NCBI RefSeq assembly: GCF_016894385.1
Contig: NZ_CP069811.1
Location: 286,501-350,500 of the forward strand
Reading direction: 5' to 3'
DNA length: 64,000 bases
DNA from: Cupriavidus oxalaticus
Lineage (GTDB): Bacteria > Pseudomonadota > Gammaproteobacteria > Burkholderiales > Burkholderiaceae
Of this stretch, positions 4,235-19,235 are shown in pieces (within the stretch, counting starts at the first letter, position 1; each line of letters starts with the position of its first letter). Made by a program: the position numbers and the translations under genes. Under the pieces are notes generated by a model. The model saw only the letters and a program-made list of their open reading frames with translations, was not told the origin of the DNA and ran no database searches.

Positions 4235-4258
4235 CTATTTGATAGCATGTCAAAAATA
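4235..4258. promoter_or_regulatory. Putative operator 1 of the TetR-regulated module
   Basis: The site reads CTATTTGA-TAGCATG-TCAAAAATAA, an imperfect palindrome matching the TTATTTGA-N7-TCAAATAA site at 5587-5609. It lies about 150 bp before the porin start at 4411. The TetR gene at 13335 is the obvious candidate reader. Confidence 0.55.
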
Positions 4259-4410
4259 AATACATTATTGGCATGGTCTCAAATAAATTCAGTAGAGGCG
4301 GATCCTTTTCCTGGTCAACAGGGGGGGCGCGGCTGCAAATCATGAGACCGCACGCCCCGGGGAGACGTCGAGACTGCTCCGGCGGCGCCATTCCCAACAC
4401 CGGAGGAGCC

Positions 4411-5475
4411 ATGAAAAGAATCCTGTCCATCGCGGGCGCCATGCTCGCGGCGGCGGCAACGCACGCCCATGCGCAGTCGTCGGTCACGCTGTATGGCGTG
4501 GCCGATGCCGGCATCGAATATCTCAACCACGTCCCCAATGCGGCTGGGCAGGGCGAGAACCTGTTCCGCATGACCTCGGGCAATATCGCCGGCAGCCGCT
4601 GGGGCATGCGTGGCGTCGAGGACCTTGGTGGCGGACTGAAGGGCGTGTTCGTGCTGGAAGGCGGCATGGTGCTGGACTCCGGCATGGCATCGCAAGGCGG
4701 GCGGATCTTCGGGCGCAAGGCCTATGTCGGGGTGGACAGCAGCACCTTTGGCCAGTTCACCATGGGCCGGCATCACAACCTGATGTTCGACCTGATCATC
4801 ACGTTCGACCCGATGTATTTCGCGCCCAAGTACTCGTCCTTCAGCCATGACCCGTGGCTGGCGGGGCGGGTCGACAATGCGGCCAAGTACACGGGCAAGT
4901 TCGGCGGCCTGACGGTGGCCGGGCTGTACAGTTTCGGGGTCGATTCGACCGTCGCCAACGGCTCGGAGGTGCCCGGCAACAGCCGCGTCGGCCGCGACAT
5001 GAGCGCGGGCTTCAGCTATCAGGCGGGCAAGTTCCGCGTTGGCGGTGTCTATGACCAGCTCAATGGCAATTCGGCGGCCAAGGCGGGGCTGACCGAGCGC
5101 CGCTATGTCGGTGCGGCAGCGGTGGATATCGGCCCGGTGACGGCCTACCTGGGCTACCGGCGCCTGGTGAGCCAGTTGCTCGCGTCGATGACGCGCACCG
5201 ACCTGATCTGGACCGGTGCGAACTGGAATATCTCGCCCAGCCTGGCGTTGACCGGGGCGGTGTACAAGACCAACGACCGTACCTCGGCCAAGGACCCGGT
5301 GTCGTTCGTGTTGTCGGCCGACTACCGGCTGTCGAAGCGTACCGATGCGTACGTGACGGCTTCGTATACCAAGAACAAGGGTGGATCAGCGCTTGGGGCG
5401 AACGGGTATGACGGTTCGGTGCTGCCCGGTGCAAACCAGATCGGCGCCGTGATCGGCATGCGCCACAGCTTCTGA
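4411..5475 (+). CDS. Outer-membrane porin, Gram-negative trimeric type
   Basis: The start is the ATG at 4411, preceded by GGAGGAG at 4402-4408; upstream in-frame ATGs have no such site. The 354-residue product has a signal peptide cut after THAHA (residues 1-21), then the family hallmark QSSVTLYGVADAGIEY. It contains the porin motif SRWGMRGVEDLGGGLKGVF and ends in the C-terminal Phe of the beta-signal (GMRHSF). It should form a 16-strand trimeric general-diffusion pore. A motif shared with the hydrolase operon and the Bug gene lies upstream, so it probably admits the substrate of the 5.6-16.5 kb pathway. A hairpin terminator follows. Confidence 0.92.
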   Translation: MKRILSIAGAMLAAAATHAHAQSSVTLYGVADAGIEYLNHVPNAAGQGENLFRMTSGNIAGSRWGMRGVEDLGGGLKGVFVLEGGMVLDSGMASQGGRIFGRKAYVGVDSSTFGQFTMGRHHNLMFDLIITFDPMYFAPKYSSFSHDPWLAGRVDNAAKYTGKFGGLTVAGLYSFGVDSTVANGSEVPGNSRVGRDMSAGFSYQAGKFRVGGVYDQLNGNSAAKAGLTERRYVGAAAVDIGPVTAYLGYRRLVSQLLASMTRTDLIWTGANWNISPSLALTGAVYKTNDRTSAKDPVSFVLSADYRLSKRTDAYVTASYTKNKGGSALGANGYDGSVLPGANQIGAVIGMRHSF

Positions 5476-5522
5476 ACCAGAATCCTCTCGTTGTCTTCTG
5501 TGCGGCGTAACCGTACTTTGGC

Positions 5523-5555
5523 GGCACGCGCCGGGCGGCGCGTGCCCCTTCTTTT
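5523..5555 (+). terminator. Rho-independent terminator after porin
   Basis: A 10-bp perfect stem GGCACGCGCC/GGCGCGTGCC with a GGGC loop (5523-5546) is followed by CCTTCTTTTCC. It separates the porin from the hydrolase operon, so the latter needs its own promoter. Confidence 0.75.
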
Positions 5556-5586
5556 CCGGCGGCGCCGGGACCATGCAAGGTTTACC

Positions 5587-5609
5587 TTATTTGACTAGCT
5601 ATCAAATAA
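5587..5609. promoter_or_regulatory. Putative operator 2, perfect palindrome before the catabolic operon
   Basis: TTATTTGA (5587-5594), a seven-base centre CTAGCTA, then TCAAATAA (5602-5609) form a perfect 8-bp inverted repeat. It lies 44 bp upstream of the hydrolase start. The same half sites recur before the porin and the Bug gene. The size and symmetry fit a TetR-family dimer site. Confidence 0.65.
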
Positions 5610-5652
5610 AACCTAAATTATTGAGATGGTAGCATTTACCACAGGAGACATC

Positions 5653-6906
5653 GTGACAGACCAAGACAAGGGGCAGGTAACAGCAGGGATGCGAGGCGCA
5701 TCATGGGACGCGCGCCTGATGTCCCGCCCTTACCAGATGGTGCCTTATGCACTCGGCACGGCAGACGGGCAGCGCACGCTTGGCTTCCTGTTCACGTTGA
5801 CAGGCAAGGAAAAGACCGTGGTCTCGCTGATGCATCCGCGCGAGATGGCGATCACGCACTACCTGGTGCCGTTCGTGCTCGATGCCGGCTGCGCCTGCTG
5901 GGTGCAGGGCCCGCGCTCGATCGGCAACGACCTGCGCCTGGAGCATGAGCTGGCGCTGCTCGACGTGGCCGCCGGCATGACGCACCTGCGCGAGCTGGGC
6001 TACGAGCGTATCGTATTGCTGGGCAATTCCGGTGGCGCGGGGCTCTATACCTTCTATAACCAGCAGGCCCAGATGCCGCCCGAACAGCGGATCGCGCGGA
6101 CCCCGGGCGGCCGCCCGACCAACCTTGCCGAGGCGCAGATGCCGGAGGTGGACGGCATGATCCTGGTCTCGCCGCATCCCGGCCAGGGCAAGCTGCTGAT
6201 GAGCGGCGTCGATCCTTCCGTGACCGACGAAGACGACCCCATGCAGACCGATGCGTCGCTGGACCCGTTCTCCGCGGCCAATGGCTTTGATGCCGCCAGC
6301 GGACGCGGCCAGTACGCGCCGGCGTTCATCGAGCGCTACCGTGCGGCGCAGGTCGAGCGCGTGGCGCGCATCGATGCGCGGGCGAAGCAGATGCTCAAGG
6401 CAAAGCATGAAGCGCGGCAGCGCATCAAGACGGGTACGGGCTCCGATGCGGACCGCCGCGTTGCCGCCCATGCGCCGATCTTCCAGGTCTGGCGCACCGA
6501 TGCGGACCTGCGCTCGTGGGATATTTCGCTCGATCCATCGGACCGCAAGACCGGATCGCTGTGGGGCAAGGACCCGTTCGTGTCGAACTGGGGCAGCGTG
6601 GGCTTCGGACGCGTGGTGACGCCGGAATCGTGGCTGTCGACCTGGTCAGGGCTCTCGTCCAACGCGGCGCTCGACAAGACCCTCGGCGCGCTGCACCAGC
6701 CCACTCTGTTGTTGGAATACACCGGCGACCAATGCACGTTCCCGGCGGATATCGATGCGATCTACCGCCAGATCCCGAGCGAGCGGAAACAGCATATCCG
6801 CGTGCGCGGCAATCACCACGGCATGGCACTGAGCCGGGACGAAGAGCCCGGCCAGCGCATCGCCGGCCGCCACATCATCGAATGGCTGCGCGCAAACATG
6901 GTGTAA
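5653..6906 (+). CDS. Alpha/beta hydrolase, first gene of the aromatic-CoA operon
   Basis: I choose the GTG at 5653 because AGGAGA lies five bases upstream; an ATG at 5626 in frame has no such site. The product is about 417 residues and has no signal peptide, so it is cytoplasmic. The nucleophile elbow is GNSGGAG (about residue 122), with Ser as nucleophile. The C-terminal His candidate is in RGNHHGMAL, and an acid candidate is in LLEYTGDQCTF. The body is larger than a minimal hydrolase, with a long insert after the elbow. In context it may hydrolyse a ring-cleavage product (for example maleylpyruvate to maleate and pyruvate) or a substrate ester. This is inference. Confidence 0.75.
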   Translation: MTDQDKGQVTAGMRGASWDARLMSRPYQMVPYALGTADGQRTLGFLFTLTGKEKTVVSLMHPREMAITHYLVPFVLDAGCACWVQGPRSIGNDLRLEHELALLDVAAGMTHLRELGYERIVLLGNSGGAGLYTFYNQQAQMPPEQRIARTPGGRPTNLAEAQMPEVDGMILVSPHPGQGKLLMSGVDPSVTDEDDPMQTDASLDPFSAANGFDAASGRGQYAPAFIERYRAAQVERVARIDARAKQMLKAKHEARQRIKTGTGSDADRRVAAHAPIFQVWRTDADLRSWDISLDPSDRKTGSLWGKDPFVSNWGSVGFGRVVTPESWLSTWSGLSSNAALDKTLGALHQPTLLLEYTGDQCTFPADIDAIYRQIPSERKQHIRVRGNHHGMALSRDEEPGQRIAGRHIIEWLRANMV

Positions 6907-6993
6907 GCGCGTCGAATACAAAGCAACAGAGCGGGGCGCCGTCCCCCCCGACATTGCCGCGCGCTGCTCCATGACAGAGAAGGGTAGACACAC

Positions 6994-8694
6994 ATGTTGC
7001 AGAACCACACCGTACGCCCCCCGCAGTTGCTGGCCGGGGTCCGATATCCCGATGAAGACCGCCTGCGCCAGTATGTCGCCGAAGGCGTGCTGACCGGCGA
7101 GTCGCTGGCCGGCGCGTTCCAGGCGTCGTTCCGCCGCCATGCCGACCGTCTGGCGCTGGCCGGGCCGGAAGGCGAGCTGACCTACAGCGACCTCGACGAG
7201 CAGACCGACCGCCTGGGCGCCGCGCTGCTGGCACTGGGCATGAAGCCGCTGGACCGCGCGGTGTTCCAGTGCGGCAACTGCAATGAGTTGTTGCTGACCT
7301 TCTTTGCCTGTTTGAAGGCCGGCATCATCCCGCTGTGCTCGCTGCAGGCGTTCCGCAAGCTGGAGATCGGCTACCTGGGCAACCTGTGCGAGGCGCGGCT
7401 GCATCTGGTGCAGGGCGACGACCCCAAGTTTGACGACGTGGCGTTCGCACAGGAGATGCAGGCAGAGGTGCCAAGCCTTGCCTATATCCTGCAGGCCCGC
7501 GGCGAGCGACGCGGCAACGCGGTCTTGCTGGCCGACCTGATCCGCGACATGCCGCTGGACCAGGCGCGCGCGCTGCTGGCCGAGGTCAGCCACGATCCCT
7601 TCCAGGTGGCGGTGTTCCAGCTCTCCGGCGGCTCCACCGGCGTGCCCAAGATCATCCCGCGCTTCCAGAACGAGTACCTGTACAACATGCGCGCGGTTGC
7701 GGCATGCAACGGTTACACGCAGGACGACGTGCTGTTCTTCCCCACGCCGTGCATGCACAACCTGAACATGGGCTGCTTCTTCGGCCCGTTCCTGCTCAAT
7801 GGCGCCGCCGTGACCGTGACGCCGGATATCGGCGAGGAAAACCTGCAGCGGCTGGTGCGGGACTATCGCCCGACGTGGTTCGGTGTGGCCGGCCCCATCC
7901 TCACGCGCATTGCGCCGGAGCTGGCCAGGGCCGATGCCGCCGGGCGCGCCCGCCGCAACTTCGTTGCACCCAAGAACGCGGCCGGGTTGACCCGGCTGAC
8001 CGGCTCGCCCACGCACCATATCTTCGGCATGACCGAAGGGGTGATCATGTTTGCGCGCCGCGACGACCCGCAGGAAATCCGCGATACCTCGATCGGCAGC
8101 CCGGTATCGGCCTGGGATGAGGTCAAGATCGTCCATCCAGGTACGGAAGATCCGGTTGCCGACGGCGAGGCGGGCGAGGCGCTGTTCCGCGGCCCCTACA
8201 CCATCCGCGGCTACTACAAGTCCGAGCAGGAAGACGTCACGCGCTTTACCGCCGACGGCTTCTACCGCTCCGGCGATCTGATGTCGTCGCGCGTGGTCGA
8301 TGGCAAGCGCTACTACTTCTTCTGCGGGCGCATCAAGGACGTGGTCGACCGCGGCGGCGAGAAGATCAACGCCGAAGAGCTGGAAAACGTCATCAACCTG
8401 CATCCCGCGGTGCTGGCCTCGGCCGTCGTGGGGATGCCGGACCGCGTATACGGCGAGCGCGTTTGCGCCTTTATCGTGCCCAAGCCGCCCGCCACCGGCC
8501 TGACGCTGCCGCAGCTCACCGAATACCTGCAGCAAGCCGGCCTGGCCAAGTTCAAGTGGCCGGAGCGGCTGGAAGTCATCAGCGAATTTCCGCTGACCGC
8601 TTCCGGCAAGCTCAGCAAGGCGCTGTTGCGCCAGCAGATCATCCAGCTGCTCGAGACCGAAGCGGCTCGCAGCACCACCACTGAAGGGAAGTGA
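6994..8694 (+). CDS. AMP-forming aryl-CoA ligase (2,3-DHB/salicylate-AMP ligase type)
   Basis: The 566-residue product belongs to the ANL superfamily and should activate an aromatic acid with ATP and load it onto CoA. The P-loop is LSGGSTGVPKIIPRF near residue 210. The adenine-pocket motif is FGMTEG (about 344), the hinge region is YRSGDL (about 423), and the catalytic Lys lies in TASGKLSKALL (about 538). The N-terminus (ADRLALAGPEGELTYSDLDEQ) and the SGGSTG form are closer to 2,3-dihydroxybenzoate or salicylate-AMP ligases (DhbE/EntE) than to fatty acyl-CoA ligases. It is followed with a one-base gap by the VOC gene, so the genes are translationally linked. Confidence 0.85.
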   Translation: MLQNHTVRPPQLLAGVRYPDEDRLRQYVAEGVLTGESLAGAFQASFRRHADRLALAGPEGELTYSDLDEQTDRLGAALLALGMKPLDRAVFQCGNCNELLLTFFACLKAGIIPLCSLQAFRKLEIGYLGNLCEARLHLVQGDDPKFDDVAFAQEMQAEVPSLAYILQARGERRGNAVLLADLIRDMPLDQARALLAEVSHDPFQVAVFQLSGGSTGVPKIIPRFQNEYLYNMRAVAACNGYTQDDVLFFPTPCMHNLNMGCFFGPFLLNGAAVTVTPDIGEENLQRLVRDYRPTWFGVAGPILTRIAPELARADAAGRARRNFVAPKNAAGLTRLTGSPTHHIFGMTEGVIMFARRDDPQEIRDTSIGSPVSAWDEVKIVHPGTEDPVADGEAGEALFRGPYTIRGYYKSEQEDVTRFTADGFYRSGDLMSSRVVDGKRYYFFCGRIKDVVDRGGEKINAEELENVINLHPAVLASAVVGMPDRVYGERVCAFIVPKPPATGLTLPQLTEYLQQAGLAKFKWPERLEVISEFPLTASGKLSKALLRQQIIQLLETEAARSTTTEGK

Positions 8695-8695
8695 T

Positions 8696-9568
8696 ATGAC
8701 CGAAGCGACGAACCCGGGCGCAGTGCCGTCCGTGCAGCTGCATGGTGTCCACCATACCGCGCGGCCGACCTGGAAGCTGGCCGAAACCGTGCATTTCTAC
8801 CGCGACCTGCTGGGCCTGCCGCTGGTGCACGCGATCTCGGCCAAGGGCTGGGGCCCGGACAACCATGCCGATTTCCTGCACTTCTTCTTCGACAGCGGCA
8901 ACGGCAGCACCATCGCCTTCTTCTACTATATCGGCACCGAGCGGCCTGACTGGCTGACCGTGCGCGAGCACTACCAGGACCGCGCCACCCATACCGCCTG
9001 GCGCGTGCGCGACGAGGCCGAGCTGCTGCTGTGGCGCCAGCGCGTGGAGGCAGTGGGCATTCCGCTGCGCTACCAGATCCGCCACGAGGTGATCGAGTCG
9101 ATCTACTTCAACGACCCCAACGGCTACCCGATCGAGATCACATGGCAGGTGCGTCCGTTCAGCGAAGCCGACGCCCTCGACGCGAAGCTGACCGTCGACG
9201 CCGCCATCGCGCTGGAGAACGAGTCTGGGGACGGCAAGCCGTTCGGCTCGATCGAGCCGGTGTGGCAGCGCAAGGCTGCCACGATCGGCACGGCCGCGCA
9301 GGCCGCCGGCAAGGCGTCGGTGTTCGTGCTGGACGTGCCGGAGTTTGGCGCGCTGATCGACGTGGCGGGCAAGACCGAGGGCTACACCACCACCGCACTG
9401 GGCAACGGCTACGTGCGCATCGACGGCAACCCGTGCATCAGCTTCCGGCGCAAGGCGCTGGGCTTCAAGCCGGCGGTCTGGTACGGCGCGCTCACCGGTG
9501 GCCTGGCCGGACGCATCGAGCAGTTCGACATGGACGCACTGGTCATTTCTCCCGGGGACACAAAATGA
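8696..9568 (+). CDS. VOC-family extradiol-dioxygenase-like protein with extra C-terminal domain
   Basis: Residues 14-155 form a vicinal-oxygen-chelate domain (GVHHTARPTWKLAETVHFYRDLLGLPLVH … THTAW … PNGYPIEITWQ). Plausible metal ligands are His20, His99 and Glu147. The 290-residue length is about twice a simple glyoxalase. The second half (residues 190-290, …ASVFVLDVPEFGALIDVAG…FDMDALVISPGD) is not an obvious second VOC repeat and I do not recognise it. In the pathway it is the best candidate for the ring-cleaving dioxygenase. Its stop overlaps the monooxygenase start as ATGA at 9565-9568. Confidence 0.75.
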   Translation: MTEATNPGAVPSVQLHGVHHTARPTWKLAETVHFYRDLLGLPLVHAISAKGWGPDNHADFLHFFFDSGNGSTIAFFYYIGTERPDWLTVREHYQDRATHTAWRVRDEAELLLWRQRVEAVGIPLRYQIRHEVIESIYFNDPNGYPIEITWQVRPFSEADALDAKLTVDAAIALENESGDGKPFGSIEPVWQRKAATIGTAAQAAGKASVFVLDVPEFGALIDVAGKTEGYTTTALGNGYVRIDGNPCISFRRKALGFKPAVWYGALTGGLAGRIEQFDMDALVISPGDTK

Positions 9569-10723
9569 AGATCGCCATCATCGGGGGCGGGCCGTCGGGC
9601 CTGTTCCTGTCGATCCTGCTCAAGGAGCGGCTGGCTGAGGTCGACATCGACATCTACGAGCAAAACCCGGAAGACGCCACCTTCGGCTTTGGCGTGGTGC
9701 TAGCCGATACCGGCCTGTCCAGCCTGCGCGCCGCATCGCCGACGGTGGTTGACGAGCTCGCCAGGGCGATGCGCTTCAGCGACCGCCACTCCATCGTCAG
9801 CCACGAGTTCCCGATCACGATGAAGCGGCCCGGCGCCGGCGGCGGCGCCATCCCGCGCATCCGCCTGCTGCAAATCCTGCAGGCGCGTGCGCGTGAACTG
9901 GGCGTGCGCGTCACCTACAACCAGCGCATCAGCGATTTCTCGGCGATCGAGGCAGACCTGGTGGTGGGTGCGGATGGGGTCAACTCGCTGCTGCGCGGTG
10001 CTAACGAAGCGGGCTTCGGCACCCGGCGCCACAGCCTGACCAACCACTTCGCCTGGTATGGCGTGGAGAAAAGCCTTCCCGAACCCGGCGCTGGTGTTCC
10101 GCAAGCACGAGGGCGGTTACTTCGTCGCGCACTATTACCCGTATTCGGACTCGATGAGCACCTTCGTTGCGGAATGCGACCACCAGACCTGGGTCGATTT
10201 CGGCATGGAGTCGATGACGCAGGAACAGCGCCAGGCGCTGTTCGAGCGGGTCTTTGCCGCCGAGCTGGGCGGCTACCGGCTGGTGTCGAACAACTCGGCG
10301 TGGCGCCAGTTCCCGGTGGTGGTCAACGATACCTGGCATGTCGGCAACCAGGTGCTGATCGGCGATGCGCTAACCAGTGCGCACTTCTCGATCGGCTCCG
10401 GCACGCGCATCGCCATGGAGGATGCGATCGCGCTGGCCGATGCCATCGTTGCCTTCCCGGACGACGTGCAGGCGGCACTGCGCCGCTACGACACCGTGCG
10501 CCGTCCCGAGAAGGCAAAGCTGATCCGCGCCTCGGAGGCCTCTTACAACTGGTATGAGCGCATCCGTGAATGGATGGACCTGGCCACGCCGCATGAGTTT
10601 GTGTTCCGCTTCATGACCCGCACCGGCCGCGTCGACCTGAACCGGCTCAAGGAACAGTACCCGAACCTGCTGGCCGAGCTGGCGGCGGCCGGCGTGCCGC
10701 TGGCGGCGGGGCAGCAGCCATGA
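9565..10723 (+). pseudogene. FAD-dependent aromatic-CoA monooxygenase (salicylyl-CoA 5-hydroxylase-like), frameshifted by one base
   Basis: The N-terminal half starts at ATG 9565 with the dinucleotide fold MKIAIIGGGPSGLFLSILL, then FGFGVVLADTGL and VVGADGVNSLLR. That frame derails after NHFAWYGVEK. The second half continues one frame over (AFPNPALVFRKHEGGYF … IGDALTSAHFSIGSGTRIAMEDAIALADAI) and stops at 10723. The break sits in an A run, AAAA at 10069-10072; removing one A restores a single protein of about 385 residues, the family length. The fold resembles the N-terminal part of 2-aminobenzoyl-CoA monooxygenase and SdgC-type salicylyl-CoA hydroxylases. It may be a true inactivation or a sequencing error. 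Confidence 0.8.
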
Positions 10724-11169
10724 TCCGCGCGACCGAGTATGTGCTGAGCGACGAACCCTTCGTGGTGCGCCGCACGGTGCGCTGGGGCGACTGCGACCCG
10801 GCCGGCGTGGTCTACACGGGCCGGTTCACCGACTACCTGCTGGGCGCGGTCGGCCTGTTCTCTGACCATATCGCCGGCGGCGCCGGCCGCCTTGGCGCAT
10901 TGCACGGCGTGGGCACGCCATGCAAGGCCATGCGCTTCGAGTTTATCGGCACGCTGTGGCCGGATGACGTGATCGACATCGAGTGCTGGGTGGAGTCCAT
11001 CCGCACGCGGTCCTACGACATCCGCTGCACGGCCCGGCGCCCGGACGGCTCGCCGGTGTTCGAGGCGACCTTCTCACCCATCTGCGTGCGGCTCGACGAG
11101 CGCGTCGGCACCCCCATCCCGGACTCGCTGCGCACGGCGCTGTCGGCCTTCCTGCGACCCGCCGCATAG
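10720..11169 (+). CDS. 4-hydroxybenzoyl-CoA-type thioesterase
   Basis: The 149-residue product has a single hot-dog domain. The motif VRWGDCDPAGVVYTGRFTDY (residues 20-40) contains the Asp that acts as catalytic base in 4HBT enzymes. It would release the free aromatic acid from the hydroxylated CoA thioester, for example gentisyl-CoA to gentisate. Its start overlaps the monooxygenase stop (ATGA at 10720). Length and motif spacing are normal for the family. Confidence 0.82.
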   Translation: MIRATEYVLSDEPFVVRRTVRWGDCDPAGVVYTGRFTDYLLGAVGLFSDHIAGGAGRLGALHGVGTPCKAMRFEFIGTLWPDDVIDIECWVESIRTRSYDIRCTARRPDGSPVFEATFSPICVRLDERVGTPIPDSLRTALSAFLRPAA

Positions 11170-11192
11170 CGCGGTTCTTCCCGCAAATCATC

Positions 11193-11948
11193 ATGCAATA
11201 CAGAATCGGACAGATTGTTCCCAGCTCCAACATCACCATGGAGCGCGAGGTGCCGGCCATCTTCGCCGGCCGCATGCAGGTGCTGCCTGAACGCTTTTCC
11301 TTCCACTCCAGCCGCGTGCGCATGCACCGGGTGGTGGCCGAGGAGCTTGAGAAGATGAACCGCGACATGGGCCGCTGCGCGCAGGAGCTGGCCGATGCGC
11401 GCGTCGACATCATGAGCACGGCGTGCCTGGTGGCCACCATGTGCATGGGCAAGGGCTACCACCGCCAGGTGATCGAGGACCTGAACGCGGCCATCGACGG
11501 GGTGCCTTACCAGCCGGCGATCATGACCTCGGCCGGCGCGCTGGTGGAGGAACTCAAGGACTTTGGCGCAAAGCGCATCGTACTGCTCGCGCCGTACAGC
11601 GACGCACTGACGAAGACTGTGGTCGAGTACATCGAAAGCGAAGGCATTGCGGTCAAGGATGCCATCAACTTCTCGATCCTCGACAACCTCGACGTCGGCG
11701 CGCGCGACCCGATGCAACTGCTGGAAGACGTCAAGCGGCTGGATACCGCCGGCGTTGACGTGGTGGTGCTGTCCGCCTGCGTGCAGATGCCGTCGCTGCC
11801 GGCGATCGAGCAGGCCCAGCTGGCACTGGGTCTACCCGTGACATCGACCGCGGTCTGCACCGCGCGCCAGATGATGCGCCGCCTCGGCATCCGCGCCGAG
11901 GCGCCCAATGCCGGCGCGTTGCTCGGCAGCAAGGCCGGACTGGCCTGA
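11193..11948 (+). CDS. Maleate cis-trans isomerase-like Asp/Glu racemase superfamily protein
   Basis: I place the start at ATG 11193 (251 residues, MQYRIGQIVPSSNITMEREV); an upstream in-frame extension runs antisense-like through the thioesterase. The two half-domains each supply a Cys: Cys78 in STACLVA and Cys196 in LSACVQM. This matches the Cys pair of maleate isomerase and arylmalonate decarboxylase relatives. PSSNITME at the N-terminus is also typical of maleate isomerase. Turning maleate into fumarate is the expected last step after a gentisate- or hydroxypyridine-like ring cleavage, and this is the strongest clue to the pathway product. Alternatives are racemase or decarboxylase activity. 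Confidence 0.8.
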   Translation: MQYRIGQIVPSSNITMEREVPAIFAGRMQVLPERFSFHSSRVRMHRVVAEELEKMNRDMGRCAQELADARVDIMSTACLVATMCMGKGYHRQVIEDLNAAIDGVPYQPAIMTSAGALVEELKDFGAKRIVLLAPYSDALTKTVVEYIESEGIAVKDAINFSILDNLDVGARDPMQLLEDVKRLDTAGVDVVVLSACVQMPSLPAIEQAQLALGLPVTSTAVCTARQMMRRLGIRAEAPNAGALLGSKAGLA

Positions 11949-12013
11949 ACGTAGCGCTGGCGCCATGACCGCCGCCCGCAGAGGCGGCTCGTATCCTGGA
12001 ACGGAGACAACCC

Positions 12014-13276
12014 ATGCAACAAGCCCTCCAACCGGCGCCCCCCGCCGGCAGATGGACCTATGCCGCCGTCATTCTCGGCGCGGCGCTGGGAATGCTGGCG
12101 GGCTATGCCCCGCTGTTCAACGCCACCGCGGGCGTGTTCGTACAGCCGCTGGCCGCGGAGTTCGGGTGGGGGCGCTCGGAAGCGTCGCTGTCCTATGCGG
12201 CTTCGATGTTCGGGCTGGCGATCGTCAGCCCGCTGGTCGGTACCATGATGGACCGCTTCGGCATCCGCCGGGTGATTTCCGTGTCCGCGCTGGTGTTCGG
12301 GCTGGCCACGGCGTGCATGGCGCTGCAGAACGGCAGCAAGGCGCTCTGGGTCAGTCTGTCGGTGGTGGTCGGCGTATTCGGCGCGGCGACGTCCGTGCTG
12401 GGCTACCTGGCGGTGCTGCCGCAATGGTTTGACCGCCGGCTGGGCCTGGCGCTCGGCATCGCCATGTGCGGGCTGGGTGCCGGCACGGTGCTGATGCCGG
12501 CGACCGCGCAGTATCTGGTGACCGGCTACGGCTGGCGCACCGCCTATGTGGCGCTGGGGATCGGATCGATCGTGCTGTCGCTGCTGGCCTGCGCGCTGTT
12601 GCGGGAGCGGGGCGGGGCTGGTGCGGCCCGGACCAGGGCGCAGGCGACGGCCGCGGACGGCGTTCCGCTCAGGCAGGCTATGCGCAGCTATCGCCTGTGG
12701 GCGATCTGGGCGGTATTCGTGCTGGGGTCCTCGGCTACGCTGTCGCTGGGCCCGCACTTGCCGGCGATGTTCGCCGACAAGGGCTTCAGCCCCGCCGATG
12801 CGGCCCGCAGCGCTTCGATGGTCGGTGTCGGCCTGCTGATCGGCCGCCTCCTGACCGGCGTGCTGATCGACCGCATCCATGCGCCGTTCGTCGCCTGTGT
12901 GTTCTTCTTCGGCGGCGCAGTGGGGATCTATTTGCTTGGCGTGACCAATGACTACCAGATGCTGCTGGTGGCCACCACGCTGATTGGCCTGACCATCGGC
13001 GCGGAAGGGGACCTGATCTCCTTTCTGGTCCGCTCGTACTTCGGGCTGCGCTCGTTCGGCGCGCTGTTCGGCATTGCGTTCTCGGGCTACGGCTTTGGCG
13101 CGGTGATCGGGCCGGTGGGGCTGGGCCTGTGGTTCGACCGCCATGGCAGCTATGGGGTGCCACTGCTGGTGCTGCCGTGCATGCTGCTGCTGGCCGGTGC
13201 GCTGACTTTGTCGCTGGGCCGCTACCGGCGCCACGGCGCAAGCGCCGCCAGCCTGCCAGAGCCGGCGGGGGCGTGA
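12014..13276 (+). CDS. MFS transporter, OxlT/monocarboxylate-like
   Basis: The 420-residue product has 12 predicted membrane segments, in two blocks of six with a short basic loop at about residues 196-215. The loop-2 motif is GTMMDRFGIRR (residue 76 region), and the matching loop 8-9 has GVLIDRIHAPF. The start ATG has GGAGA ten bases upstream. It lies 65 bp after the maleate isomerase gene in the same direction, so it probably carries the aromatic acid or an organic-acid product across the inner membrane. The overall pattern resembles the oxalate/formate antiporter clade. Confidence 0.8.
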   Translation: MQQALQPAPPAGRWTYAAVILGAALGMLAGYAPLFNATAGVFVQPLAAEFGWGRSEASLSYAASMFGLAIVSPLVGTMMDRFGIRRVISVSALVFGLATACMALQNGSKALWVSLSVVVGVFGAATSVLGYLAVLPQWFDRRLGLALGIAMCGLGAGTVLMPATAQYLVTGYGWRTAYVALGIGSIVLSLLACALLRERGGAGAARTRAQATAADGVPLRQAMRSYRLWAIWAVFVLGSSATLSLGPHLPAMFADKGFSPADAARSASMVGVGLLIGRLLTGVLIDRIHAPFVACVFFFGGAVGIYLLGVTNDYQMLLVATTLIGLTIGAEGDLISFLVRSYFGLRSFGALFGIAFSGYGFGAVIGPVGLGLWFDRHGSYGVPLLVLPCMLLLAGALTLSLGRYRRHGASAASLPEPAGA

Positions 13277-13310
13277 TTTTCCGAACGCGGGCGTGGCGGG
13301 GTAGAATTCC

Positions 13311-13337
13311 CATGGCCGCAATTTCCTTGCGGCCATG
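13311..13337 (+). promoter_or_regulatory. Perfect 11-bp hairpin spanning the TetR start codon
   Basis: CATGGCCGCAA (13311-13321), loop TTTCC, TTGCGGCCATG (13327-13337). The right arm contains the ATG at 13335 taken as the TetR start. In mRNA the hairpin would bury that start codon, so translation may be controlled or may begin at the in-frame ATG at 13359. On DNA it could be an autoregulatory operator. No T-run follows, so it is not a normal terminator of the MFS gene. Confidence 0.5.
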
Positions 13338-14174
13338 CCTTCGAACGGTCAACCCAAAATGCCTGCCGCCCGCAAATCCCCAGCCGCTGCCAGCAAGACG
13401 CCCTCATCGCTGACTGCGCCGAATGCGCCACGCCGCCGTGGCCGGCCGCCCAAGACGGATTCGCCGATCGGCGCCGAGCCCATGCTCAGCCGCGTGGCCA
13501 TCCTCCAGCACGCGATCAGGCTGACCAAGAGCGTACCGCTGGACCAGATTTCCATGGTGCAGCTGGCCAAGGATTTCGGTGTCGCGCCTGGCTTGATCCA
13601 CTATTACCTGGGCGGCCGCGACCAGCTCGTCTCCGGTGTGCTCAACGACTACTACCGCCAGCGCGTCGGGCGCCTGCCTTCGCTGACGGGCGACTGGCGT
13701 GCCGATGTGGAGGGCATCGCCCGGCTGAGCTTCGAAGTGGCGATGGAGAACCCCGGCGTCAGCATCTATGTCGCGTCACACAACCGGTTCCGCCTGTTCC
13801 AGGATGTCGAGCCGGGCGAGACGGACTACGGCATGGAGTTCTTCAATCGCATGACGTCGGCCATCATGCAGGGCGCCTTCACGGCAGAGCAGGTGGCGCT
13901 GGGCTACCACCTGATTGCGCAGTACCTGGTTTCCGCCAGCATGGCGGAAGCCTCGCGCCAGCTGCCGGCCTATCACCAGAGCTTTATCGAAAAGAAGCTG
14001 GATTCCGCCTCTGAACTCCAGTATCCCGGCGCGCGCTTTGTCAGCAAGGCCTTCTCCCGGCTGTCTTCCGATACCGCGTTCGAAGAGGGCCTGCGCATCA
14101 CGCTGGATGGCATCGAGGCGTGGAAGCAGGACAAGCGCCAGCCCGCACGCAAGCCGCGCAGCAAGGCTGCCTGA
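13335..14174 (+). CDS. TetR-family transcriptional regulator of the aromatic-CoA module
   Basis: The 279-residue product has a basic, proline-rich tail (residues 1-45, RRRGRPPK, an AT-hook-like patch), then the TetR helix-turn-helix (ISMVQLAKDFGVAPGLIHYYLGGRDQL, about residues 73-100) and an all-helical ligand domain. The start could be 13335 or the ATG at 13359. It sits between the MFS gene and the Bug gene, same strand. It is the most plausible reader of the TTATTTGA/TCAAATAA operators at 4235, 5587 and 14272-14325. A CoA thioester or the aromatic acid itself may be the inducer. Confidence 0.85.
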   Translation: MPSNGQPKMPAARKSPAAASKTPSSLTAPNAPRRRGRPPKTDSPIGAEPMLSRVAILQHAIRLTKSVPLDQISMVQLAKDFGVAPGLIHYYLGGRDQLVSGVLNDYYRQRVGRLPSLTGDWRADVEGIARLSFEVAMENPGVSIYVASHNRFRLFQDVEPGETDYGMEFFNRMTSAIMQGAFTAEQVALGYHLIAQYLVSASMAEASRQLPAYHQSFIEKKLDSASELQYPGARFVSKAFSRLSSDTAFEEGLRITLDGIEAWKQDKRQPARKPRSKAA

Positions 14175-14271
14175 GGCCAATCCCCATATCCCTCCGACCG
14201 ATCAGGCGGTGCGCCGCATGACGCGCGCCTGAGGCGTCCGTTCTGCGCCAACAACCCGTAGTGGTAAGTCC

Positions 14272-14325
14272 TTATTTGATATGTAGGCAATTAATCTAAA
14301 ATTAATTGTCGCTATATCAAATAAA
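14272..14325. promoter_or_regulatory. Putative operator 3, two outward half sites before the Bug gene
   Basis: TTATTTGATAT (14272-14282) and ATATCAAATAAA (14315-14325 region) are the same half sites as in the 5587 operator, but some 30 bp apart with an AT-rich core (TTAATCTAAAATTAATTG). They may be one split site or two degenerate ones. The Bug gene starts about 50 bp downstream. Confidence 0.5.
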
Positions 14326-14374
14326 AATCGCCACGCCGCCCCCGGCAGGCCATGCACTACATACGGGAGACAAC

Positions 14375-15343
14375 ATGAAACGTCGCGCCTGCCTCGGGCT
14401 GCTTCTTCTGGCCGGGCTGACTGCCACGGCTTCTGCCAACGCTGCTGCATATCCGGACAAGATGGTGCGCATCGTCGTGCCATCGATCGCGGGCAGCGCG
14501 CCCGACATCATTGCGCGGCAGGTCGCCGAGCGCCTGACCGCCGCCTGGAAGCAACAGGTCATCGTCGAGAACAAGCCCGGCGGCAACGGCATCGTCGCCA
14601 TGAGCGCGCTGCGGCAATCGGCGCCGGATGGCTACACCCTGGGCCTGTTCCACGCCGCCGCTGCCGTGATCACGCCGATGATGTACAAGGAGGCGAAATT
14701 CGATATCCAGCGCGACACGGAAGTCGCCTCGACGCTGGCCTACACCCCAATGATGTTCGTTGCCGACCCCAAGGCCGGCTACCAGAGCCTTGCCGATGTG
14801 CTCAAGGCCGGCAAGGCCAGTCCCGACGACATCGCCATCGGCAGCCCGACGCGCGGCTCGGTGCCCCACCTGACCGCCGAGATGATGGGCCAGTTGCAGA
14901 AGACAAAATTCCGCCAGATCGGCTTCAGCGGCACCACGCAGGCGATACAGGCCGTGGTGAAGGGCGATGTGCCGGTCTATGTCGACGGCATCGCACCGCT
15001 GGTGCCGCTGGTGCGCAGCGGCCGGCTCAAGGCGCTGGCGGTCACCTCGGACACCGCGCTGCCGGGGCTGGACGGCATCCCGCTGGCGAAAGACATGGCG
15101 CCTGGCCTGGTCGTCAAGGGCTGGTTCGCGCTGTTTGCGCCCAAGGGCACGCCCGCCGCGGTGCTTGATGAGGTCAACGCTGCGGTCAGCCGCACCCTGG
15201 CGCAGCCCGCCTTTGTCGAACGGCTGAAGGAGCTTGGCACCTATCCGATGGCGCAGGGCCGCGAGCCGAGCGCACGGTTTGTGCAGGCGGAGAAGATGCG
15301 ATGGGAGCGGGTGATCCAGGAGGCGGGCGTCAAGCCTGAGTAA
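14375..15343 (+). CDS. Bug (TctC-type) periplasmic binding protein 1
   Basis: The start is ATG 14375 with GGGAGA upstream; the frame is open further 5' but without a site. The 322-residue product has a signal peptide (MKRRACLGLLLLAGLTATASANA), then YPDKMVRIVVPSIAGSAPDIIARQVAERL and ENKPGGNGIVAM, the two loops that bind the carboxylate in Bug proteins. No TctA/TctB membrane partner is in the window. It should capture the pathway's acid substrate in the periplasm. It is 25 bp before the next gene. Confidence 0.88.
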   Translation: MKRRACLGLLLLAGLTATASANAAAYPDKMVRIVVPSIAGSAPDIIARQVAERLTAAWKQQVIVENKPGGNGIVAMSALRQSAPDGYTLGLFHAAAAVITPMMYKEAKFDIQRDTEVASTLAYTPMMFVADPKAGYQSLADVLKAGKASPDDIAIGSPTRGSVPHLTAEMMGQLQKTKFRQIGFSGTTQAIQAVVKGDVPVYVDGIAPLVPLVRSGRLKALAVTSDTALPGLDGIPLAKDMAPGLVVKGWFALFAPKGTPAAVLDEVNAAVSRTLAQPAFVERLKELGTYPMAQGREPSARFVQAEKMRWERVIQEAGVKPE

Positions 15344-15368
15344 TTTAACCAACGAGGACGTGCTAACA

Positions 15369-16541
15369 ATGAATCGAAACGGAATGCGTGTCTCCTGGCG
15401 ACGGGCGTCATCTGCGGCGCTGCTCGCCGCCTGTGCGACGATCTGCGTCTTTTCCCCTACTGCAGCCGCGCAGCAAGCCAGCGCACCGGCCGGTGCCAGG
15501 GCCGGGGCCCACCTTGTCCTGCTGGGCACGTCTGGGGGGAGAACTTCCTGGCGCGGCGTGCAGGCTGCCGGCATCTCGTCGGCCGTGGTGGTGAATGGCC
15601 AGGTTTACCTGGTGGACTTCGGCGCGGGCTGGCTCCGGCGCTATTTCCAGGCAGGGCTGGGTGCGCCGCCGCCCGCGCGCGGCCTGGAATCGCTGCGGGC
15701 TGCCTTCATTACCCACCTGCATGCGGACCACGTGGTGGACTACCCGTCGCTGGTACTGTTTGGCGCCTCGGACGGGCTGAGCGAGCGCAAGACGCCCGTG
15801 CGCGTGTTCGGGCCTGGCGCTCGCGGAAAGCTCCCGCCTGTCAGCGGCAGCACGTCCGGTGTCTCGGCGATCGTCTCACCGGAAAGCCCGACTCCCGGTA
15901 CCCTCGCCATGACCGAGTCGATGTACCGGGCGTTTGCAACTGACATCAACGACAACATCCTGGAAAGCCGCAAGCCCAACCCGCATACGCGGGTCGAGGT
16001 GCAGGACATTGCCATTCCCGCGCAGGCCGACATCGATCCCAACACCAACCCGGCGCCGGACATGGCACCGTTCCCGGTCTACCAGGACGAGAACGTCAAA
16101 GTCACCGCGACGCTGGTCAGCCATCCTCCAGTGTATCCGTCATTTGCCTTTCGCTTTGATACCGCAGAAGGATCGGTCGTCTTCTCCGGCGACACCAGCC
16201 CCAGCCGCAACCTGATCCGGCTGGCTCAGGGCGCGGATGTGCTGGTGCACGAGGTGATCGACACCGCGTGGGTCGACGCCTTGTATCCGAAGCCGCGCAA
16301 TGCGGCGCAGGAGGCCAAGGCGCACCACCTGGTGCATTCCCATACCGCGGTGGAGGATGTAGGCGCGGTCGCGCAGGCTGCCAATGTGAAGGTACTGGTC
16401 CTGTCGCACCTGGCGCCGGCCGACAACGCGGAGGGACGCTGGGCGAGGGCGAAGGAGGGATTCAGCGGAGACGTCCTGGTAGGGAAGGATCTGCAGTGGA
16501 TTCCCTTGCGCGCGAAATCACGAACCAACGCGGAACAATAG
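15369..16541 (+). CDS. Exported metallo-beta-lactamase-fold hydrolase
   Basis: Of two close starts I prefer ATG 15369, ten bases after GAGGA; GTG 15360 is too close to it. The 390-residue product has a long signal peptide ending near AAAQQASA (residue 40). The metal-binding HxHxDH is THLHADHVVDY (about residue 118), and further ligands are likely in FSGDTSPS and LVLSHLAPAD. The arrangement resembles the arylsulfatase/RNase Z-like MBL clade. It follows the Bug gene directly and is probably periplasmic. It could hydrolyse an ester, lactone or sulfate to feed the pathway; the substrate cannot be told. Confidence 0.75.
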   Translation: MNRNGMRVSWRRASSAALLAACATICVFSPTAAAQQASAPAGARAGAHLVLLGTSGGRTSWRGVQAAGISSAVVVNGQVYLVDFGAGWLRRYFQAGLGAPPPARGLESLRAAFITHLHADHVVDYPSLVLFGASDGLSERKTPVRVFGPGARGKLPPVSGSTSGVSAIVSPESPTPGTLAMTESMYRAFATDINDNILESRKPNPHTRVEVQDIAIPAQADIDPNTNPAPDMAPFPVYQDENVKVTATLVSHPPVYPSFAFRFDTAEGSVVFSGDTSPSRNLIRLAQGADVLVHEVIDTAWVDALYPKPRNAAQEAKAHHLVHSHTAVEDVGAVAQAANVKVLVLSHLAPADNAEGRWARAKEGFSGDVLVGKDLQWIPLRAKSRTNAEQ

Positions 16542-17904: not shown

Positions 17905-19235
17905 CAGGCTGCTGAAATACCTCCAGCGGAAGTCAGCGCGACAGCCGGGTGAAGCGTTGATTTGAGGATCCCATCCAACCTCACATTTATGCGCGGCGCA
18001 GACACCTTCTCCGAAAGCCTGTTCACCATGCGGAGGCTGGATGATTTCGTGCCAAAGTCCCACCCGCTGCGCTCGATCCGCACTATGGCCAACCTGGCGC
18101 TGGTGAAGATGAACCGGTTGTTCGCGCAGATGTACGAGGCCGACATTAAGGGCGGCCGGCCCAGCATCGCGCCGGAGAAGTTGCTGCGGGCCATGCTGCT
18201 GCAGGTGCTCTACAGCATTCGCTCCGAACGCCAGCTCATGGAGCAGACGCAATACAACCTGCTGTTTCGCTGGTTCATCGGGCTGTCGATGGACGATACA
18301 GTTTGGGTGCCCACGGTCTTTACCAAGAACCGCGAACGGCTGATCAAGCATGATGCGGTGATCGAGTTCTTCAACGAAGTGCTGGCCATCGCGCAGAAGA
18401 AGGACTGGCTGTCGGGCGAGCACTTCAGCGTCGACGGCACGCTGATTCAAGCGTGGGCGGGCCACAAGAGCTTCGTGCGCAAGGATGGCGGCGACGAAGA
18501 CGACAACGACGGCGCCAACTTCAAGGGTCGCAAGCGCGGCAACGACACGCACGAGTCCAAGACCGATCCCGATGCCAGGCTCTACCGCAAGGGCAAGACC
18601 GCCAGTGCACTGCGCTACATGGGTCATACCCTGAGCGACAACCGCCACGGCCTGGTGGTGAGCGCGATGGTCACCAATGCGGACGGACATGCCGAGCGCG
18701 AGGCCGCCAAAGTCATGCTAAATGATGCCAGGCAGGTGGCTGAGGACCTGGATGTGGAAGTCACCGTGGGCGCGGATAAGGGCTACGACGCCGAAGAATT
18801 CATTCAGGCATGCCTGGAGATGAAGGTGACGCCCCACGTGGCACAGAACACCTCGGGGCGGCGCTCGGCCGTTCCGGACGAGATCGCCAACAGCACCGGT
18901 TATGCGATCTCGCAGCAGAAGCGCAAGTTGATCGAACAAGGCTTTGGCTGGGCCAAGACCGTGGGGCGCATGCGCCATGTGATGGTGCGCGGCCTGAAGA
19001 AGGTTGACCAGATGTTTGTGCTGAGCATGGCCGCCTACAACCTCGTGCGCATGCGCTCGCTGGGACAAATCCGTCCGCAGTTGCCGTAATCGCGGTAATG
19101 AGGCCGGAATCAGGTACCAAATCGCTGATAAAGTCGATGCAGTGACGTTCGGCTTCCGGATTGTGAAAAATCACAAACCAATCAGCCTTGCAGGGGAAGC
19201 TTCGCCGCTTGCGCGGCGAGTACTTCAGCAGCCTG
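17905..19235 (+). mobile_element. IS5-family insertion sequence, complete
   Basis: The element is 1331 bp with terminal inverted repeats beginning CAGGCTGCTGAA (17905-17916 and, inverted, 19224-19235); the match continues with one mismatch then TAC. It is flanked by TTAA on both sides (17901-17904 and 19236-19239), which fits the YTAR-type 4-bp duplication of the IS5 group. One transposase gene fills it. The intact ends, duplication and gene mean the insertion is recent and probably still mobile. Confidence 0.85.
17962..19089 (+). CDS. IS5-family DDE transposase
   Basis: The 375-residue product starts MRIPSNLTFMRGADTFSESLF; an internal ATG near FTMRRLDDFVPKSHPLR is the more conserved family start. 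The DDE catalytic residues are in FSVDGTLIQAW (first Asp, about residue 158), GADKGYDAEEF (second Asp, about 275) and LIEQGFGWAKTVGRMRHV (Glu, about 330). The N-terminal domain has the IS5 pattern GGRPSIAPEKLLRAMLLQVLYSIRSERQL. No frameshift is present, so it should be active. Confidence 0.92.
   Translation: MRIPSNLTFMRGADTFSESLFTMRRLDDFVPKSHPLRSIRTMANLALVKMNRLFAQMYEADIKGGRPSIAPEKLLRAMLLQVLYSIRSERQLMEQTQYNLLFRWFIGLSMDDTVWVPTVFTKNRERLIKHDAVIEFFNEVLAIAQKKDWLSGEHFSVDGTLIQAWAGHKSFVRKDGGDEDDNDGANFKGRKRGNDTHESKTDPDARLYRKGKTASALRYMGHTLSDNRHGLVVSAMVTNADGHAEREAAKVMLNDARQVAEDLDVEVTVGADKGYDAEEFIQACLEMKVTPHVAQNTSGRRSAVPDEIANSTGYAISQQKRKLIEQGFGWAKTVGRMRHVMVRGLKKVDQMFVLSMAAYNLVRMRSLGQIRPQLP

What the first reader, a model, noticed from the sequence alone, without database searches (positions are those of the whole stretch)
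4235..16541. Candidate complete aromatic-acid-to-fumarate route through CoA thioesters
In order: porin, alpha/beta hydrolase, DhbE-like aryl-CoA ligase, VOC protein, SdgC/ABM-like FAD hydroxylase, 4HBT thioesterase, maleate-isomerase-like racemase, MFS, TetR, Bug protein, exported MBL hydrolase. The chemistry fits: acid to aryl-CoA, ring hydroxylation on the thioester, thioesterase release (e.g. gentisate), ring cleavage by the VOC protein, hydrolysis to maleate and pyruvate, and maleate to fumarate. The SdgABCD salicylate route of Streptomyces is a known analogue, but the VOC-plus-hydrolase-plus-maleate-isomerase ending differs from its cupin gentisate dioxygenase. This may be a variant pathway; all steps after the ligase are inferred from family and order.
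Basis: partly seen in the sequence, partly recalled or inferred. Interest (0 to 1): 0.75.

Follow-up and report, generated by a model that had tools for sequence, protein, structure and literature searches.

The report
Salicylate-type acid degradation gene cluster
A conserved block of Cupriavidus genes looks built to break down salicylate-like aromatic acids through CoA-linked intermediates, with an unusual ring-cutting enzyme and an unusual hydrolase, although one gene, the ring hydroxylase, is frame-broken in this particular genome.

Summary
The eleven genes are present in the stated order, but the FAD hydroxylase (9565-10723) is frameshifted near 10060-10070, so this copy is not a complete route. 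The gene is one open frame in 33 of 33 named relatives' loci, in a sister cluster of the same genome, and in two near-identical database proteins.

The proposed chemistry gains support. The ligase is DhbE-like with two pocket residues typical of salicylate ligases. The VOC protein keeps an H-H-E metal site; its best solved relative is titled a homogentisate 1,2-dioxygenase. The racemase-like protein matches solved maleate isomerases, both cysteines kept. In eight other loci a related hydroxylase sits beside a cupin gentisate-type dioxygenase; five also show a maleate isomerase. That is the same logic with other cleavage enzymes.

Best reading: a CoA-linked, salicylate-type route ending in VOC ring cleavage, alpha/beta hydrolysis and maleate isomerisation; a new variant of a known kind. 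Substrate and all activities are inferred. Against it: the hydrolase's structural matches are esterases and lipases, and nine loci lack the isomerase in the cluster.

The parts
4411..5475 (+). porin (Porin_4); accessory, rarely conserved with the cluster
   Evidence: Pfam PF13609 E 1.4e-50; in 4 of 33 named loci at 75% identity or more
5626..6906 (+). alpha/beta hydrolase, no Pfam or NCBIfam family; proposed ring-cleavage-product (maleylpyruvate-type) hydrolase
   Evidence: No Pfam or NCBIfam match at E 0.001; predicted alpha/beta-hydrolase fold, best matches lipases and esterases; S135, D368, H398 in 33 of 33 named loci
6994..8694 (+). DhbE-family aryl acid adenylating enzyme / CoA ligase
   Evidence: 6e8o E 5.9e-90, salicylate ligases 5wm2 E 2.5e-89 and PchD 7tyb E 5.4e-85; pocket N-L/M-C-I-T-I in 32 of 33 named loci, the 33rd (L051) fragmented
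8696..9568 (+). VOC protein, proposed para-diol ring-cleaving dioxygenase
   Evidence: PF00903 E 6e-12; 9u42 by sequence E 3.4e-14 and by Foldseek E 4.9e-10; H20, H99, E147 in 33 of 33 named loci
9565..10723 (+). FAD aromatic hydroxylase (SdgC/VioD-like), frameshifted between about 10060 and 10070
   Evidence: intact homologues; C-terminal piece VioD 3c4a E 3.4e-33 and NF006101 178 bits
10720..11169 (+). hotdog-fold aryl-CoA thioesterase (4HBT_2)
   Evidence: PF13279 E 2.6e-15; 2oaf E 3e-13, 4-hydroxybenzoyl-CoA thioesterase 1bvq E 2.4e-5; DCDPAG motif, D24 and D26 in 27 of 27 loci that have the gene
11193..11948 (+). maleate cis-trans isomerase
   Evidence: 4fq7 E 6.3e-67, 2xec E 1.2e-50, both cysteines aligned; both cysteines in 23 of 24 loci, the 24th (L051) a fragment
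12014..13276 (+). MFS transporter, proposed uptake of the acid
   Evidence: PF07690 E 1.2e-40; 23 of 33 named loci
13335..14174 (+). TetR-type regulator
   Evidence: PF02909 E 1.4e-7; 32 of 33 named loci, upstream of the hydrolase on the opposite strand in Paraburkholderia, Caballeronia, Variovorax and Burkholderia Bp9142/Bp9143 loci
14375..15343 (+). Bug-type periplasmic binding protein with signal peptide (named by reading; no NCBIfam match)
   Evidence: NCBIfam none; 18 of 33 named loci
15360..16541 (+). exported metallo-beta-lactamase-fold hydrolase; accessory
   Evidence: PF12706 E 2.5e-12; 6 of 33 named loci

Best explanation
The cluster encodes a CoA-dependent route for salicylate or a ring-substituted salicylate. 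The DhbE-like ligase makes the aryl-AMP and then the aryl-CoA; the FAD enzyme hydroxylates C5 on the thioester; the hotdog thioesterase releases gentisate (or its derivative); the VOC enzyme opens the ring in the gentisate 1,2 manner; the alpha/beta hydrolase splits the maleylpyruvate-type product into maleate and pyruvate; the isomerase turns maleate into fumarate. MFS and porin would take up the acid and TetR would regulate. Shown by sequence: families, catalytic residues, gene order, conservation. Inferred: every substrate, every activity, one ligase doing both half-reactions. In this strain the hydroxylase reading frame is broken (real mutation or assembly error), so this copy cannot run alone as read; the intact sister cluster at C1:1.376-1.383 Mb could supply the enzyme.
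Confidence: 0.55

Rival explanations
1. Same enzyme logic, other ring acid: anthranilate, aminosalicylate or a hydroxypyridine carboxylate is activated, hydroxylated, released and cleaved, giving maleate or a maleamate-type product.
For: The hydroxylase family includes 2-aminobenzoyl-CoA enzymes (recalled). The parallel clusters carry a nitrilase-family gene and a cupin also matching 5-aminosalicylate dioxygenase. Two pocket positions of the ligase are unlike known salicylate and DHB ligases. A third cluster in this genome has a different pocket, N-A-Y-L-T-L. A ligase-hydroxylase-thioesterase trio for citrazinate is recalled; two searches found no paper on it.
Against: None of the eleven genes is an amidase or deaminase by family; Cys240/Ile337 as in the salicylate ligase PchD.
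Confidence: 0.2
2. The alpha/beta hydrolase is an esterase that frees the aromatic acid from an ester before activation, and the ring-cleavage product is handled elsewhere.
For: Foldseek list of lipases, cinnamoyl and feruloyl esterases; it is the first gene of the operon; the cell also has canonical gentisate enzymes such as a cupin dioxygenase at C1:910020.
Against: Conserved VOC-hydrolase pairs without the ligase and hydroxylase in L075, L076 and L081; no signal peptide is apparent in the translation (by reading).
Confidence: 0.15
3. In this strain the cluster is a decaying pseudo-operon made redundant by its sister cluster.
For: Frameshift in the hydroxylase only in this copy; intact sister cluster L060 at 78-86% identity for hydrolase, ligase, VOC, hydroxylase C-part, 4HBT and isomerase.
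Against: The other eight coding stretches tested keep dN/dS 0.04-0.16 and are open; two near-identical proteins elsewhere are intact, so the break is recent, or an assembly error, which cannot be told from this assembly.
Confidence: 0.4
4. The VOC protein is not a dioxygenase but an epimerase, isomerase or thiol transferase of the same fold.
For: Methylmalonyl-CoA epimerases have the highest Z in the second structural look (11.4); fosfomycin thiol transferases are among the sequence hits.
Against: Best sequence and Foldseek match is 9u42, homogentisate dioxygenase; the route has no other ring cleaver in the cluster, and 5 of 13 congeners lack the cupin enzyme.
Confidence: 0.12

Closest known systems
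SdgABCD salicylate-to-gentisate route of Streptomyces sp. WA46 (paper not held; SdgC role from passages of PMC13215587; the rest recalled)
   Same: DhbE/EntE-like ligase, SdgC-like FAD hydroxylase acting on the CoA ester, gentisate as the expected intermediate
   Different: One ligase instead of two proteins (recalled); VOC instead of cupin dioxygenase; own hydrolase and maleate isomerase; thioesterase in the operon
gtd/nag gentisate route (C. necator H16 gtdA-maiA, PMC11603403, passages)
   Same: Gentisate to maleylpyruvate; that paper also states the glutathione-independent alternative, maleylpyruvate hydrolase giving maleate and pyruvate
   Different: H16 uses a cupin dioxygenase, a maleylpyruvate isomerase and fumarylpyruvate hydrolase; here VOC, alpha/beta hydrolase and maleate isomerase
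Fused salicylyl-CoA 5-hydroxylase/oxidoreductase (NF006101; 2-aminobenzoyl-CoA monooxygenase/reductase, recalled) clusters L087-L094
   Same: Hydroxylase relative, cupin gentisate-type dioxygenase adjacent, 4HBT upstream (L087, L090 looked at), maleate isomerase in 5 of 8
   Different: Those hydroxylases carry a reductase domain (L090, Oxidored_FMN), cupin and FAH enzymes; L090 also has a nitrilase-family gene and TPP/POR-type oxidoreductase genes; no DhbE-like ligase was seen near them
VOC-fold homogentisate 1,2-dioxygenase 9u42 (Acinetobacter)
   Same: Fold, H-H-E positions, para-diol acid substrate class
   Different: 182 residues, single domain, matched stretch about 26% identical; the window protein has an extra C-terminal domain
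Maleate isomerases NicE/Iso (4fq5, 4fq7) and 2xec
   Same: Sequence over the whole length, two cysteines, PSSN motif
   Different: In an aromatic-acid CoA cluster rather than a nicotinate cluster
Gentisyl-CoA thioesterase BH1999 of Bacillus halodurans (PMC516016, passages)
   Same: Hotdog thioesterase in a gentisate pathway cluster
   Different: Not compared by sequence here; other phylum

Membership tests
Maleate isomerase | Full-length similarity to solved maleate isomerases | tested here: met
   4fq7 E 6.3e-67 over residues 3-245 of 251; arylmalonate decarboxylase only E 2.2e-4
Maleate isomerase | Two catalytic cysteines | tested here: met
   C78 and C196 aligned; both in 23 of 24 loci with the gene, one locus fragmentary
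DhbE-type aryl acid adenylating enzymes | Family similarity and pocket Asn (DhbE 235; numbering recalled) | tested here: met
   but below the NCBIfam equivalog cut-off for DHB-AMP ligase (364 of 724 bits)
Salicylate-specific ligases | Cys at DhbE 240 and a larger aliphatic at 337 (role recalled) | tested here: met
   Cys and Ile as in PchD; 5wm2 has Cys and Leu; DHB ligases 6e8o, 1md9 and EntE 3rg2 have Ser and Val
Salicylate-specific ligases | Aromatic residue at DhbE 236 | tested here: not met
   Leu or Met in all 32 readable named loci; Tyr or Phe in the five solved ligases aligned
Sdg (WA46-type) pathway | SdgC-like FAD hydroxylase | tested here: inconclusive
   Family match of the C-terminal piece and of the intact sister to NF006101, under its cut-off; SdgC itself was not available; the window copy is frameshifted
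Sdg (WA46-type) pathway | Cupin gentisate dioxygenase in the cluster | tested here: not met
   VOC protein instead; the genome's cupin enzyme is elsewhere, C1:910020
Fused salicylyl-CoA hydroxylase/oxidoreductase (NF006101) | C-terminal reductase domain and score over 1078 bits | tested here: not met
   Intact sister is 390 aa, 322 bits, FAD half only
Type I extradiol (VOC) dioxygenases | 2-His-1-Glu metal site in a VOC fold | tested here: met
Gentisate 1,2-dioxygenase activity | Cleaves gentisate | not testable with these tools
   needs enzyme assay
Maleylpyruvate hydrolase | Hydrolyses maleylpyruvate | not testable with these tools
   Ser-Asp-His conserved, substrate unknown
4-hydroxybenzoyl-CoA-type thioesterases | Hotdog fold with the catalytic Asp of the DCDPAG motif (PMC516016 names Asp17) | tested here: met

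The most novel reading that the evidence does not exclude
A widespread, undescribed Burkholderiales pathway in which CoA-linked salicylate catabolism is finished by two enzyme families not known for these steps: a two-domain VOC gentisate-type dioxygenase and a Pfam-less alpha/beta hydrolase acting as maleylpyruvate hydrolase, with a NicE-type isomerase borrowed from nicotinate catabolism. The VOC-hydrolase pair would be a movable module that replaces the cupin-FAH pair in otherwise parallel clusters.
Probability: 0.45. Interest if true: 0.65.

Novelty: new variant of a known kind. Interest (0 to 1): 0.5.

Why it matters
If true, it gives a gene-level account of a CoA-linked salicylate route in many soil and plant-associated Burkholderiales, where salicylate is also a plant defence signal. 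It would explain how congeners without a cupin gentisate dioxygenase over the cut-off could still open the ring, and it would correct automatic annotation: the hydrolase has no Pfam or NCBIfam model, and the VOC and hydroxylase rows that carried names had mostly generic ones. It also shows a clean non-homologous replacement: cupin plus FAH exchanged for VOC plus alpha/beta hydrolase in the same logical position.

Tried and rejected
Considered and set aside. Arylmalonate decarboxylase for the racemase-like protein: Pfam calls it Amdase, but the solved maleate isomerases win by more than 60 orders of magnitude in E-value. Fatty-acid ligase: weaker models only. Fused aminobenzoyl-CoA monooxygenase/reductase: no reductase domain.

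Led nowhere. Literature searches for this gene set or a VOC gentisate dioxygenase listed no paper seen to describe it; the library holds open-licence papers only, so this is weak evidence of absence. DsmD of Rhizorhabdus dicambivorans is cited as a gentisate dioxygenase (reference lists); I recall it as possibly VOC-type, but the paper is not held. No paper on 9u42 was found. I looked at the genes around the cluster in four named loci (L038, L041, L042, L058), three of them without the isomerase, and saw no obvious replacement (read by eye, no family scan). VIA-align gave no row for 9u42 among the 50 shown and covered mainly residues 4-166, so the C-terminal domain of the VOC protein is untested.

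Mistakes mended. In one search I translated the hydroxylase N-piece in the wrong frame, so its FADn column is void; redid it. In one search the 'GDO' query was an antisense ORF; its hits mark the right place on the wrong strand, and one search identified the real cupin protein in L090. The pocket tally counted overlapping loci more than once; one search recounts the 33 named loci. The 33 loci were selected by the hydrolase, so its count says nothing about conservation. The eight parallel clusters were chosen because they had gentisate-dioxygenase hits (8 of 20 stretches fetched show the fused hydroxylase), so they show association, not frequency.
Full report
What is there. The window lies in a 6.69 Mb two-contig genome. 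Its nearest named relatives are Cupriavidus (C. lacunae hydrolase 95% identical), so the organism is inferred to be a Cupriavidus. Ligase, VOC, hydroxylase, thioesterase and isomerase are spaced by 1, -4, -4 and 23 bases.

The broken gene. The hydroxylase reads as two pieces in two frames. Blasted apart, the first 165 residues and the C-terminal piece match one continuous frame in each of the 33 named loci and in the unnamed relatives examined; only the window's own copy is split. Two database proteins, P0164 and P0169, match the N-piece at 165 of 165 and the C-piece at 217 of 220 and 215 of 217 residues and are whole; P0164 lies on a contig of the same listed length as one carrying the VOC protein at 100%, so a sister strain with an intact gene probably exists. 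Both pieces still show strong purifying selection. The break is therefore recent or an assembly error. 'Complete route' does not hold for this copy as sequenced.

Copies in the same genome. A sister cluster (L060, C1:1368000-1387000) has hydrolase 86%, ligase 83%, VOC 83%, hydroxylase C-part 78%, 4HBT 79%, isomerase 83%, TetR 75% and Bug 78%, with no MFS hit and only a partial MBL. A third, divergent cluster (L061) has hydrolase 58%, VOC in two ORFs, ligase 37%, isomerase 67% and hydroxylase 46%, with no thioesterase hit; its ligase pocket is N-A-Y-L-T-L, so it probably takes another acid.

Conservation. One genome-contig scan by the hydrolase gave 33 loci in Cupriavidus (12), Burkholderia (3), Paraburkholderia (5), Caballeronia (2), Achromobacter (4), Pigmentiphaga (2), Variovorax (2), Candidimonas (1) and two less-placed Burkholderiales. 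Ligase, VOC and hydroxylase accompany it in 33 of 33, TetR in 32, thioesterase in 27, isomerase in 24, MFS in 23, Bug in 18, MBL in 6, porin in 4 (thresholds 40-75% identity; some loci end early). The core is hydrolase-ligase-VOC-hydroxylase; the thioesterase and isomerase are common but not constant. In four loci read by eye (L038, L041, L042, L058), three of which lack the isomerase, no obvious replacement was seen.

Ligase. Its best solved relatives are 2,3-dihydroxybenzoate and salicylate AMP ligases. At DhbE positions 235, 240 and 337 (numbering and roles recalled) it has Asn, Cys and Ile. PchD (salicylate) has Asn, Cys, Ile; 5wm2 (salicylate) Asn, Cys, Leu; DhbE, 6e8o and EntE Asn, Ser, Val (alignments). 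At 236 it has Leu or Met where these have Tyr or Phe, and at 333 Thr for Ala. The signature is constant in the 32 named loci that can be read. This favours a salicylate-type acid and leaves room for a substituted one. That one enzyme makes both the adenylate and the thioester is inferred.

Hydroxylase and thioesterase. The intact sister protein scores best against the bifunctional salicylyl-CoA 5-hydroxylase/oxidoreductase model (322 bits, FAD half only, cut-off 1078), then violacein VioD; some database entries name relatives salicyloyl-CoA 5-hydroxylase, which is annotation, not test. The thioesterase matches 2oaf (E 3e-13) and 4-hydroxybenzoyl-CoA thioesterase (E 2.4e-5) with the DCDPAG aspartate. 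A hotdog gentisyl-CoA thioesterase in a gentisate cluster is on record (PMC516016, passages).

Hydrolase. It has no Pfam or NCBIfam family; Ser135, Asp368 and His398 are constant. The model (pLDDT 78.7) matches lipases and esterases. Its role on the ring-cleavage product rests on its partnership with the VOC protein, including distant VOC-hydrolase pairs without the ligase and hydroxylase in L075, L076 and L081.

Isomerase. It matches solved maleate isomerases over its length with both cysteines. The same genome has two further relatives (53-54%) in clusters that I read by eye as nicotinate-type (L083, L084).

Parallel clusters. In eight Cupriavidus stretches (L087-L094) the fused hydroxylase relative lies beside a cupin; the one scanned (L090) scores best as gentisate 1,2-dioxygenase (322 of 442 bits) and then 5-aminosalicylate dioxygenase (276 bits), and is followed by an FAH hydrolase, a nitrilase-family gene and a maleate isomerase, with a 4HBT upstream. 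The isomerase appears in 5 of the 8; the other 3 stretches stop at a contig end. The logic is the same and the cleavage enzymes differ. The nitrilase gene hints that the acid there may carry nitrogen.

Need for an own ring cleaver. Of 13 congeners with a VOC relative of 83% identity or more, 8 have a cupin gentisate dioxygenase over the family cut-off and 5 do not (G012, G020, G023, G030, G035). If gentisate is the intermediate, those five need another enzyme. The window's own genome has one cupin enzyme elsewhere (C1:910020).

Known ground. CoA-linked conversion of salicylate to gentisate by SdgC is cited in PMC13215587 (passages). The C. necator gentisate operon uses cupin, isomerase and fumarylpyruvate hydrolase, and the same paper names the maleylpyruvate hydrolase alternative (PMC11603403, passages). 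A standard scheme puts gentisate dioxygenases in the cupin class (PMC4250580, passages). Each step is thus known; the combination and two of the enzyme families are not in anything I could find (searches listed under Tried and rejected).

Verdict. A well-conserved, very probably real catabolic cluster whose most likely job is a CoA-linked salicylate-type route to fumarate and pyruvate, with a VOC plus alpha/beta-hydrolase ending. It is a new variant of a known kind, with its hydroxylase broken in this assembly.

Noticed in passing
L061 (C1:2364000-2383000) and L071, L072, L073, L074: In the divergent third cluster type the VOC protein is encoded by two adjacent ORFs in all five loci seen, as if the two domains had been separated.
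   Followed up: partly
L075, L076, L081: Distant VOC (30-36%) and hydrolase (30-33%) pairs without the ligase and hydroxylase of this cluster; L075 also has an FAH-like and a Bug-like gene.
   Followed up: partly
L083 and L084 (own genome, C2:858000-877000 and C1:735000-754000): Two further maleate isomerase genes in what look by reading like nicotinate (nic) clusters.
   Followed up: no
window 17962-19089: Transposase-like ORF just downstream of the cluster (named by reading).
   Followed up: no
window 30259-30376, - strand: Rfam Betaproteobacteria-1 RNA, 84.8 bits against a gathering score of 49.4.
   Followed up: no
L090 3152-6884: Large TPP-enzyme and POR-domain oxidoreductase genes stand at the head of the parallel cluster with the fused hydroxylase; an aryl-pyruvate or indolepyruvate-type substrate upstream is possible.
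   Followed up: no
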